Assembly: GCA_030834125.1 (NCBI GenBank)
Contig: JAURFW010000002.1
Coordinates: forward strand, 64,289 to 128,288
From: Bacteroidota bacterium
GTDB taxonomy: Bacteria > Bacteroidota > Bacteroidia > NS11-12g > UBA955
Length of the DNA: 64,000 nt
Direction of reading: 5' to 3'
The notes under the pieces were generated by a model. That model ran no database searches, had not been told where the DNA came from, and saw only the letters and a program-made list of their open reading frames with translations. This document shows positions 4,755 through 7,850 of this stretch, piece by piece (the first letter of the stretch is position 1; each line of letters starts with the position of its first letter). The translations under genes and the position numbers were made by a program.

Positions 4755-7358
4755 TTATTGGCCGTTTTCCTCAATCCACTGTAAATAGGCTTGCCAATCA
4801 AGGTCAGATGCTAATAATTTTAAATTATCTGGATTTATCAGAACTACTGCGTATTCAAATAAACCTTTTGCCGAGAAATATTCATTTTGGCGAATTAAAA
4901 AATCCTTGTAAAATTTTGTTTTCGATTGGGATTCAAAATTTTCAATTGTAATTAAGTACTTCTCAGGAGTGGTTAAGGTGGGTCCCAATTGAATATTTTC
5001 TAGGCTAAATTCTTTTTTGTTTAAATCAGAAATAGCGGCTTTTACCAAGTTTATATTGCTATTACGTGGGATAATCATAATACAAGATAATGGATCGTTA
5101 CTGCCGAAATTAGTATACTTTAGTCCGATGTTTGAAGGATTAGAATTTCCAGTATCGCTTGCCGCTCTTGATATTCTGTCTTTTGCATCAATTAAACTTT
5201 GACTCCTTAAAGCAATATCTGTGTTTGGATAGTCAATAGTTAGTTGTTCAAAAATCCCAAAAGCCTTGTCATTGCCAAGTTTGATTTGACATAGCGCATA
5301 TACAAAATCAAATCTCGGTTGAAGCGAATTTCCAGAATATTCCTTGTCTGTTTCTAGCTTAATAGATACGGCTTTTTCTAACTCGCCCGATTGGTATGCT
5401 AAAACCATAGAATCATATTTACCTTGGATAATCTGATTACTCTCTGTTTGAGTTGATTTAATAATATTAACGGTATTCGGATTATCCAACATCTTCAAGT
5501 AAACGCTGTTTGGATACTGAATTCTCAAACTATCCTTATAGGCTGTGCTTAATTCTTTGTTTTGTTCTAATCTGTAAAGCTTGGAAAGTTCATAGAATAC
5601 TTGAGGCTTATATTCGCTATTTACATATCTATTCAGTAATTCCAAGTACTGTCGAATAGAACTTTTGTATTCATATAGCCTTACATTATAAATTTCTGCA
5701 GATTTTAACAGAGATTCCTCTATTTCGGATAGCATTTGTTGTTGTTGCTCTTTCTTTAAGGGCAGATTTGTATAAAACCTTCTATCTTCTTTTGGAATAT
5801 CTTGGAGTAGGGTAGTATCGATTTCTGGTTCATCCTGTGAAGTATCGGCTGAACCATTATTCGTATTTGTGTTTTGAAGGATTAACTTCTGAGTAATGCT
5901 TCGGTACTTCCAAAAATCAGTATTGTTTCTTATTCCCCACTTTCTTTGAAATTCAGCAACGCCATTTTTTCGAGTAACTACATTGTAAAATGGAAATGAA
6001 CTTCCATTGCTATTACCACCCGGCATCATGTTATTGCCCATTTGTGGGCGATTGAGAATGTTATTTTGTTGATTGGCTAATTTATCTTTCTCGAGCTTTT
6101 CTAATTTTTTAGCTTCTTTGATTTTATCTTCTCTGAAATCTTTATTAACAGCCATTCGTATCAATGAATCATTAGTTTTGATTCTGATTAAATGCTCTAA
6201 CAAATCTGATAAAATCATATTCTTCTTTAGGATTTCCTCAAAGTCTGGATGGCTTTCATCTAAAGAACGATTTGCTGAATCATAATACAAACCAGCTTTT
6301 TCGAACATGCGATTTTGGTAGTAAATATCACCAAGTTTCACGAAGGATGTGGTTTTTTGTGACTTATCATTTTCTGAATTTCTTACAGAAGTTATTAGGG
6401 TTTCTATGGCTTTTTCTTGCTTACTCGAGTTCAATTCATTTAATGCAATTCGGTAATAGATTTTACCCAAATAGTCTATATTTTTATCATCTCTCAACAT
6501 CTGTTGGAGGATACGATTTGCTTTCTTATAGTCTTTTTGTTTTGCAGATAATATACTTACTTGTTCAATTTGAGAGTTAAACGTTAATTCATAGGGAGGA
6601 TTAAATTTTGGGACTTTTGAATAAAAGTATTCTGCTTTGCTGTAATTACCCAACTTCTGATAGCTTTGACCTAATGCAAAATAAACGCGGTATTTATCCA
6701 TACGATTTCTTAGCTTGGGAAGCGCCTTTTCAAAATATTCTGCCGATAATGAATATCGTTTTTGAGTATGATAAACTTCAGCTAAAGTCAGGTCAGCCAA
6801 ATATTCAAGAGTTTTAGGAAGGTCAGGGTTTTTTCTGATTGCAGAAGACATTGCTTCGGCCTCAATAATTTTATCTTCCAACAAAAGTGATTTTACAGAC
6901 CACAATTTTGCTAAAAACAAAATCTCCGGATCGCTAAATTGCGTAGCAACATAGTCAAATATATTCAAGGCGGCGATTGCATCTCCTTTAAATAAATATG
7001 CTTTTCCCGTGAGTAAGTAGGCATCATCAACCCATTTACTACCTGGATGTTTATCTATCATTGTACTCGCTCTTTTGATAGCGTCATCCATGGATGCCAT
7101 ATTTGATTCTAGCGATTTTACTGTTCCATAATTGAAAATTCGAATTGGCTTTCTGAAGTCCTCCGTATATTCTTCACGAACTTTGTCTCTAGTTTCGAAC
7201 CATAATTGCTCAGCATTAAAATAGGTATTGTAATGTGCGAGAGTGTTGTGCCATTGCTTGTAAGTCCAACTTTCTTCATTTCCGCAGCTAGTTATCGCAA
7301 AAGCTAAAGCTGCCCATCCTAATATTTTTATTCTCGCTACGATGCCTACAAATCTCAT
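4755..7358 (-). CDS. sprE: SprE/PorW-family TPR lipoprotein of gliding motility and type IX secretion
   Basis: The start chosen is the ATG that gives MRFVGIV, because it yields a compact lipoprotein signal ending in the lipobox AITSC (Cys25); an upstream ATG at 7403 would add 15 residues and overlap the promoter of the divergent gene. The 867-residue protein opens with the family signature WTYKQWHNTLAHYNTYFNA and has many TPR-like helical repeats to about residue 370, a polar Asn/Gln-rich linker (about 415-500), then more repeats and a C-terminal domain. SprE/PorW proteins attach to the periplasmic side and are needed for T9SS and gliding. The length fits the family. PBP1A lies downstream. 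Confidence 0.88.
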   Translation of the reverse strand: MRFVGIVARIKILGWAALAFAITSCGNEESWTYKQWHNTLAHYNTYFNAEQLWFETRDKVREEYTEDFRKPIRIFNYGTVKSLESNMASMDDAIKRASTMIDKHPGSKWVDDAYLLTGKAYLFKGDAIAALNIFDYVATQFSDPEILFLAKLWSVKSLLLEDKIIEAEAMSSAIRKNPDLPKTLEYLADLTLAEVYHTQKRYSLSAEYFEKALPKLRNRMDKYRVYFALGQSYQKLGNYSKAEYFYSKVPKFNPPYELTFNSQIEQVSILSAKQKDYKKANRILQQMLRDDKNIDYLGKIYYRIALNELNSSKQEKAIETLITSVRNSENDKSQKTTSFVKLGDIYYQNRMFEKAGLYYDSANRSLDESHPDFEEILKKNMILSDLLEHLIRIKTNDSLIRMAVNKDFREDKIKEAKKLEKLEKDKLANQQNNILNRPQMGNNMMPGGNSNGSSFPFYNVVTRKNGVAEFQRKWGIRNNTDFWKYRSITQKLILQNTNTNNGSADTSQDEPEIDTTLLQDIPKEDRRFYTNLPLKKEQQQQMLSEIEESLLKSAEIYNVRLYEYKSSIRQYLELLNRYVNSEYKPQVFYELSKLYRLEQNKELSTAYKDSLRIQYPNSVYLKMLDNPNTVNIIKSTQTESNQIIQGKYDSMVLAYQSGELEKAVSIKLETDKEYSGNSLQPRFDFVYALCQIKLGNDKAFGIFEQLTIDYPNTDIALRSQSLIDAKDRISRAASDTGNSNPSNIGLKYTNFGSNDPLSCIMIIPRNSNINLVKAAISDLNKKEFSLENIQLGPTLTTPEKYLITIENFESQSKTKFYKDFLIRQNEYFSAKGLFEYAVVLINPDNLKLLASDLDWQAYLQWIEENGQ

Positions 7359-7379
7359 AGATTTATCCGTTAAAAACGA

Positions 7380-7387
7380 TAATTTTG
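7380..7387 (+). promoter_or_regulatory. -7 promoter box for the bactofilin/ATP synthase operon
   Basis: TAATTTTG matches TAnnTTTG exactly, 40 bases before the chosen start of the M23-like stub gene. It would give a leader of about 35 bases. No strong -33 element is seen. Confidence 0.45.
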
Positions 7388-7426
7388 GACAATTATTCGA
7401 CATTTGTTTTAGTTTATCATAAATTC

Positions 7427-7810
7427 ATGGAAAAAAGGAAGCGCAAAATTATTTCCAAACTTCGAAACAAACACAGATTTGTTTTAATAAATGACAACAC
7501 TTTTGAGGAAATAGTTTCGGTAAGACTTACTCCATTGAATATATTGATTATTGCCTCAACTATAATAATTGTTTTTTCTTTGACTTTATACTCTGTATTT
7601 GCTTATACCCCCATGCGTAATTTAATCCCTAAAGAATTAACGGGGAGCGAAAGGGCAGAGTTGATTCAGTTAAATCAAGAATTACACGAAATAAAACAAG
7701 AGCTGGAAACTAGAAATCAAAAGATTGGGGTAATGAATGATTTATTATCAGGTAAAGAATCCAAATATGACAGTACCTCAGTAAGGCCAAATTCGCACCG
7801 GTCGAATTAA
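7427..7810 (+). CDS. Membrane stub of the bactofilin-associated M23 peptidase family (peptidase domain absent)
   Basis: The start chosen is the ATG that gives MEKRKRKII (127 residues); a longer reading from 7385 would run over the promoter box. Visible parts are a basic N-terminus, the segment HRFVLINDNTFEE, one membrane helix (about residues 40-58), the motif YTPMRNLIP, and a coiled coil (about 75-105). This N-terminal architecture resembles what I recall of M23/LytM proteins encoded before bactofilin in this phylum. Here the protein stops at about the end of the coiled coil, with no HxxxD/HxH zinc motifs and no remnant in the 56 bases before the next gene. It may act as a scaffold rather than an enzyme, or be a decayed copy. 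Confidence 0.65.
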   Translation: MEKRKRKIISKLRNKHRFVLINDNTFEEIVSVRLTPLNILIIASTIIIVFSLTLYSVFAYTPMRNLIPKELTGSERAELIQLNQELHEIKQELETRNQKIGVMNDLLSGKESKYDSTSVRPNSHRSN

Positions 7811-7842: not shown

Positions 7843-7850
7843 TATCTTTG
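7843..7850 (+). promoter_or_regulatory. -7 promoter box ahead of bactofilin
   Basis: TATCTTTG followed by C is an exact TAnnTTTG match, 17 bases before the chosen bactofilin start. It lies inside the longer open reading that begins at 7840, which argues for the later ATG. Confidence 0.55.

What the first reader, a model, noticed from the sequence alone, without database searches (positions are those of the whole stretch)
7427..7810. M23-family protein reduced to its membrane stub beside bactofilin
The gene keeps a basic N-terminus, HRFVLINDNTFEE, one membrane helix, YTPMRNLIP and a coiled coil, the front half of the LytM peptidase that I recall next to bactofilin in this phylum. The peptidase domain is completely absent, and the 56 bases that follow hold no remnant. 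A clean stop, an intact reading frame and retained synteny suggest a kept structural role (for example a bactofilin anchor) rather than recent decay.
Basis: partly seen in the sequence, partly recalled or inferred. Interest (0 to 1): 0.6.

Follow-up and report, generated by a model that had tools for sequence, protein, structure and literature searches.

The report
Bactofilin partner that lost its enzyme
A cell-wall-cutting enzyme that normally sits beside the skeleton protein bactofilin has, in a whole group of Bacteroidota, permanently lost its cutting half and survives only as a conserved membrane piece, probably an anchor for bactofilin, which suggests that the anchoring matters more than the cutting.

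Summary
The 127-aa ORF (7427-7810) is the N-terminal half of the LmdC-type M23 peptidase of Bacteroidota: basic helix, beta-hairpin, one membrane helix, coiled coil. It stops where the linker to the LytM domain begins. Same-length orthologues (122-130 aa) occur in 42 of 70 genomes of the family, in eight genera; 22 others keep a long form, as does the sister family. The stubs form one clade on a PorW tree (SH-aLRT 99) and an unlinked RpoC tree (100/100), so one old deletion. The stub is under strong purifying selection (dN/dS 0.067, like its neighbours). No M23 remnant follows it and no free copy exists elsewhere. Instead, the next 56 bases hold a Bacteroidota -7 promoter box, found in 39 of 40 stub loci but 2 of 28 long-form loci. 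Two sister lineages keep the domain but lost catalytic residues. Published LmdC work maps bactofilin binding to such a hairpin. Best explanation: a catalysis-free membrane anchor/adaptor for bactofilin. Retention is shown; the anchor role is inferred. New variant of a known kind.

The parts
7427..7810 (+). Stub gene: N-terminal half of an LmdC-type M23 protein, 127 aa, no peptidase domain
7430..7465 (+). Predicted basic cytoplasmic helix (residues 2-13)
   Evidence: AlphaFold2 model, low confidence there
7475..7525 (+). Predicted cytoplasmic beta-hairpin (residues 17-33, RFVLINDNTFEEIVSVR), proposed bactofilin-binding element
   Evidence: AlphaFold2 model; K15, R17, V19, N22, D23, S31 invariant in the stubs; LmdC hairpin in PMC10945521
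7532..7606 (+). Membrane helix (residues 36-60)
   Evidence: AlphaFold2 model and hydrophobic sequence
7643..7747 (+). Periplasmic helix, probable coiled coil (residues 73-107)
   Evidence: AlphaFold2 model
7769..7780 (+). Conserved tail motif D-S-T-S (residues 115-118) marking the truncation point
   Evidence: D115 invariant, S116 95% in 42 stubs; alignment with long forms
7843..7850 (+). TATCTTTG, match to the Bacteroidota sigma-A -7 box TAnnTTTG, 16 bases before the bactofilin ATG
   Evidence: 39 of 40 stub loci against 2 of 28 long-form loci; consensus from PMC9723704
7867..8265 (+). Bactofilin, the only one found in the genome
   Evidence: PF04519; one match in G000
4755..7403 (-). Divergent neighbour PorW/SprE (type IX secretion lipoprotein), part of the conserved neighbourhood
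   Evidence: NF052312, 465.8 bits

Best explanation
The gene is the retained front half of an LmdC-type, bactofilin-linked M23 endopeptidase whose LytM domain was deleted once, in the ancestor of a multi-genus clade. It now works without catalysis: the cytoplasmic beta-hairpin binds bactofilin polymers, the membrane helix fixes them to the inner membrane, and the coiled coil reaches into the periplasm, where it may self-associate or contact other wall proteins. Bactofilin in this clade appears to have its own promoter. Shown: homology, truncation point, single origin, conservation, absence of a remnant or free copy, promoter-box enrichment. Inferred: bactofilin binding and anchoring.
For: Same slot and homology to long M23 forms. 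42 of 70 family genomes carry the short form. One clade on PorW and RpoC. dN/dS median 0.067. No remnant, no free copy. Most conserved part is the cytoplasmic hairpin, predicted as a hairpin. LmdC hairpin binds bactofilin, and a cytoplasmic-plus-membrane fragment co-localises with it (PMC10945521). An overproduced PbpC membrane anchor restores localisation of BacA lacking its membrane-targeting sequence (PMC12448750). Catalysis was also lost in g13 and g3 while the N-terminus stayed.
Against: No binding evidence in this phylum. The hairpin is predicted at only moderate confidence. porW is as constant a neighbour as bactofilin; in g14 the stub stays beside porW while bactofilin lies elsewhere. 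Genus g4 has one disrupted copy and one genome without a match. Stub-clade bactofilins still have short N-terminal tails (several begin MF) that could bind the membrane unaided.
Confidence: 0.68

Rival explanations
1. The stub is an adaptor rather than mainly an anchor: its periplasmic coiled coil recruits or stabilises a separate wall enzyme, so that bactofilin still steers hydrolysis through another protein.
For: The periplasmic part is conserved and under purifying selection. In H. pylori, the non-enzymatic Csd7 stabilises the hydrolase Csd1 (PMC9507126). Stub genomes keep other M23 proteins.
Against: No candidate partner is linked to the gene, and stub genomes have fewer M23 proteins, not more.
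Confidence: 0.2
2. The conserved role is tied to the divergent neighbour PorW (type IX secretion or gliding), and bactofilin adjacency is incidental.
For: porW is divergent to the gene in every examined stub locus, also in g14, where bactofilin lies elsewhere, and in many long-form loci across the phylum.
Against: Bactofilin is adjacent in nearly all other stub loci; in six loci outside the order it lies at the far end of porW, still in the cluster. The conserved part faces the cytoplasm, whereas PorW is a lipoprotein of the periplasm.
Confidence: 0.08
3. Pseudogene, recent decay, or an assembly error that hides a peptidase domain.
For: One g4 genome (G016) carries a deletion with a frameshift inside its stub.
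Against: 42 assemblies end at the same place, dN/dS is about 0.07, no remnant is found in any frame, and the stubs form one clade.
Confidence: 0.02

Closest known systems
LmdC, bactofilin-linked M23 endopeptidase (Hyphomonas neptunium, Rhodospirillum rubrum; PMC10945521)
   Same: Gene beside bactofilin; short cytoplasmic region with a beta-hairpin, one membrane helix, periplasmic coiled coil (architecture compared here by prediction and by the paper's text)
   Different: The M23 domain is absent. The LmdC sequence itself was not held, so no direct alignment was made.
Long-form M23 protein beside PorW and bactofilin in other Bacteroidota
   Same: Direct homology over the whole stub, same genomic slot
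   Different: Long forms continue into a linker and LytM domain; the stub ends before them
PbpC membrane anchor fragment of Caulobacter (PMC12448750)
   Same: Cytoplasmic tail plus membrane helix without the enzyme binds bactofilin and, when overproduced, restores localisation of BacA lacking its membrane-targeting sequence
   Different: That fragment was engineered and comes from a wall synthase; the stub is natural and comes from a hydrolase
Csd5, Csd7 and Csd2 of Helicobacter pylori (PMC9507126)
   Same: Non-enzymatic partners in a bactofilin shape complex; Csd5 is a transmembrane protein that recruits bactofilin to the envelope, Csd2 is a non-enzymatic M23 homologue
   Different: No sequence relationship to the stub was tested; Csd2 keeps its M23 fold, the stub does not

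Membership tests
LmdC-type bactofilin-linked M23 peptidase | Gene next to bactofilin | tested here: met
   Bactofilin 56 bases downstream; adjacent in nearly all stub loci, not in g14
LmdC-type bactofilin-linked M23 peptidase | Short cytoplasmic region, one membrane helix, periplasmic coiled coil | tested here: met
   AlphaFold2 model, by prediction
LmdC-type bactofilin-linked M23 peptidase | Cytoplasmic beta-hairpin that binds bactofilin | tested here: inconclusive
   Hairpin predicted at moderate confidence and conserved; binding not testable here
LmdC-type bactofilin-linked M23 peptidase | C-terminal M23 (LytM) domain with HxxxD and HxH | tested here: not met
   No domain in the protein, no remnant behind it, no free copy in the genome. 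So it is a descendant of this family, not a peptidase.
Homologue of the Bacteroidota long-form M23 N-terminus | Significant sequence similarity and same slot | tested here: met
Non-enzymatic bactofilin anchor (as Csd5 of H. pylori) | Recruits bactofilin to the membrane | not testable with these tools
   Needs binding or localisation experiments
Non-enzymatic bactofilin anchor (as Csd5 of H. pylori) | Sequence relationship to Csd5 or Csd7 | not tested
   Their sequences were not fetched

The most novel reading that the evidence does not exclude
In this family, catalysis by the bactofilin-linked M23 protein was abandoned up to three times (once by deletion of the whole domain, twice by loss of catalytic residues) while the N-terminal half stayed, and bactofilin in the domain-less clade has its own promoter. 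The conserved core of the bactofilin-M23 module would then be a membrane scaffold, with the peptidase an optional attachment.
Probability: 0.5. Interest if true: 0.62.

Novelty: new variant of a known kind. Interest (0 to 1): 0.5.

Why it matters
Bactofilin and M23 peptidases are regarded as one morphogenetic module in which bactofilin positions the enzyme. Here is a natural, old and stable separation of function: the bactofilin-facing half survives without the enzyme, under selection about as strong as on its neighbours. It makes testable whether the partner's main job is to anchor and organise bactofilin. It also shows that surveys that require an M23 domain next to bactofilin, as the published one did (PMC10945521), miss part of the module.

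Tried and rejected
Pfam, NCBIfam and PDB searches gave nothing meaningful for the stub itself; the weak hits are hydrophobic or coiled-coil noise. Compensation by a free or relocated M23 domain was considered and rejected. The M23 gene near bactofilin in g14 was checked: a 249-aa frame with another gene between it and bactofilin, scoring only 75 bits with the LytM profile, so not the lost domain. The ATP-synthase tree put g2 with the sister family; because RpoC and PorW both place g2 with the other stubs, this was taken as an oddity of the g2 atp genes, not a second loss. A -33 TTTG box at 18-21 bases spacing was found in only 8 of 39 stub loci (expected 1.8), so only the -7 element is claimed. 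Literature searches found no report of such a reduced form, within the library held. No direct alignment with LmdC was possible, because its sequence was not held.

Full report
What is there. Window 7427-7810 (+) encodes a 127-residue protein with an intact frame. It has no significant Pfam match. Behind it, after 56 bases, lies the only bactofilin found in the genome (7867-8265; PF04519), then AtpI and the ATP-synthase genes. In front, divergently, lies PorW/SprE of the type IX secretion system (NF052312, 465.8 bits).

Relatives. Of 57 genomes searched, 52 have a match, and in nearly all examined loci the gene sits in the same slot, divergent to porW and before bactofilin. In the whole family, 42 of 70 genomes have the short form, one (G016) has a disrupted short form, 22 have a long form, and five have no match (open frames of the long forms are about 275-350 aa, except one cut by a contig end). 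In the sister family the matches lie in long frames of about 270-320 aa, with two shorter ones (G051, G053) not read in full; the sister-family loci read in full carry both M23 motifs. Relatives from genomes across Bacteroidota are also long M23 forms. The long form is therefore ancestral and the short form derived. The short proteins are 122-130 aa and end at the same place, after the coiled coil and a conserved D-S-T-S tail, where the long forms continue into a variable linker and the LytM domain.

One old event. On a PorW tree of 89 loci the 42 stub loci form one clade (SH-aLRT 99). On an unlinked RpoC tree, 14 stub genomes form one clade with 100/100 support. An ATP-synthase tree agrees for 15 stub genomes (100/100) but puts genus g2 with the sister family. 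RpoC and PorW both place g2 with the other stubs, so I read this as an oddity of the g2 atp genes, possibly transfer.

Kept, not decaying. Median dN/dS is 0.067 over 89 within-group pairs, against 0.060 for PorW and 0.041 for bactofilin (simple Nei-Gojobori pair counts). No LytM remnant lies between stub and bactofilin in any frame. No free copy of this LytM type is found in stub genomes: with a profile of the lost domain, the long-form genes score 115-213 bits, while the best in any stub genome is 84.7, in the range of other M23 paralogues that long-form genomes also have. Stub genomes of at least 90% completeness average 3.6 M23 matches against 6.0 in long-form genomes (related genomes, so the P value there is not independent, and a weak RpoC match is counted in G000).

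Catalysis lost elsewhere too. In genus g13 all 16 readable proteins lost the HxH motif, and HxxxD is intact in only six. In g3 all four catalytic positions are changed. g6, g9 and g11 keep all four. The PorW tree places g13 next to g6 and g3 next to g9, so these look like separate losses. The RpoC tree puts g13 as sister to the stubs (95/93) but lacks g6 and g3, so a first step shared by g13 and the stub clade cannot be excluded.

A promoter box behind the stub. 39 of 40 stub loci have TAnnTTTG between the stub and bactofilin (2.9 expected from shuffles), against 2 of 28 long-form loci (0.8 expected). TAnnTTTG is the sigma-A -7 consensus in flavobacteria (PMC9723704). In the window it is TATCTTTG at 7843-7850, 16 bases before the bactofilin start. 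Many long-form loci have gaps of only 3-30 bases, as in an operon. Loss of the domain and a promoter of bactofilin's own thus go together in this clade. Start sites have not been measured, and a -33 box is not convincing.

How it most likely works. The AlphaFold2 model has a basic helix 2-13, a hairpin 17-21/28-33, a membrane helix 36-60 and a helix 73-107 (mean pLDDT 71.5, about 58-72 around the hairpin). In H. neptunium the LmdC cytoplasmic tail binds BacA with KD of about 15 uM; in R. rubrum the cytoplasmic hairpin is needed, a cytoplasmic-plus-membrane fragment co-localises with BacA, and BacA needs the interaction for normal placement (PMC10945521). In Caulobacter an overproduced membrane anchor of PbpC restores localisation of BacA that lacks its own membrane-targeting sequence (PMC12448750). 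In H. pylori the non-enzymatic Csd5 recruits bactofilin to the envelope (PMC9507126). The stub looks like a natural version of those fragments. Binding and anchoring here are inferred, not shown.

Caveats. porW is as constant a neighbour as bactofilin. In g14 and g9, and in one sister-family locus, bactofilin lies elsewhere; in six loci outside the order it sits at the far end of porW. G002, G003, G008 and G028 lack both a stub match and a bactofilin match, but linkage and incompleteness may explain that.

Verdict. Observation confirmed; interpretation supported, with the anchor role still to be tested. A new variant of a known kind: an LmdC-type protein reduced, once and stably, to its bactofilin-facing half.

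Noticed in passing
L031, L037, L146-L160 (genus g13), L038 (g3): The bactofilin-linked M23 protein keeps its domain but lost catalytic residues: HxH lost in all 16 readable g13 proteins, all four positions changed in g3.
   Followed up: partly
window 7843-7850; gaps of 39 stub loci: A sigma-A -7 box in front of bactofilin is nearly universal in the stub clade and rare in long-form loci.
   Followed up: partly
L140 (G016, genus g4): The stub carries an internal deletion with a frameshift (about residues 66-95 missing); real decay or an assembly error. The other g4 genome (G028) has neither a stub nor a bactofilin match.
   Followed up: partly
L166, L167 (genus g2): The ATP-synthase genes of g2 group with the sister family, whereas PorW and RpoC place g2 in its own family; possible transfer of the atp genes.
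   Followed up: partly
L136, L137, L141, L142 (genus g14): The porW-stub pair and the bactofilin-atp cluster are separated; the stub persists unlinked from bactofilin.
   Followed up: partly
L099, L107, L123, L126, L130, L134: Outside the order, the M23 gene is divergent to porW and bactofilin lies at the far end of porW instead of behind M23.
   Followed up: no
window 7427-7537: Across stub pairs, synonymous divergence is lower in the first 37 codons (pS 0.38) than in the rest (0.58-0.69), perhaps because of overlapping start or promoter signals of the divergent genes.
   Followed up: no
L220-L223 (G023): rpoC is broken into several frames in this long-contig genome, probably sequencing error.
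   Followed up: no
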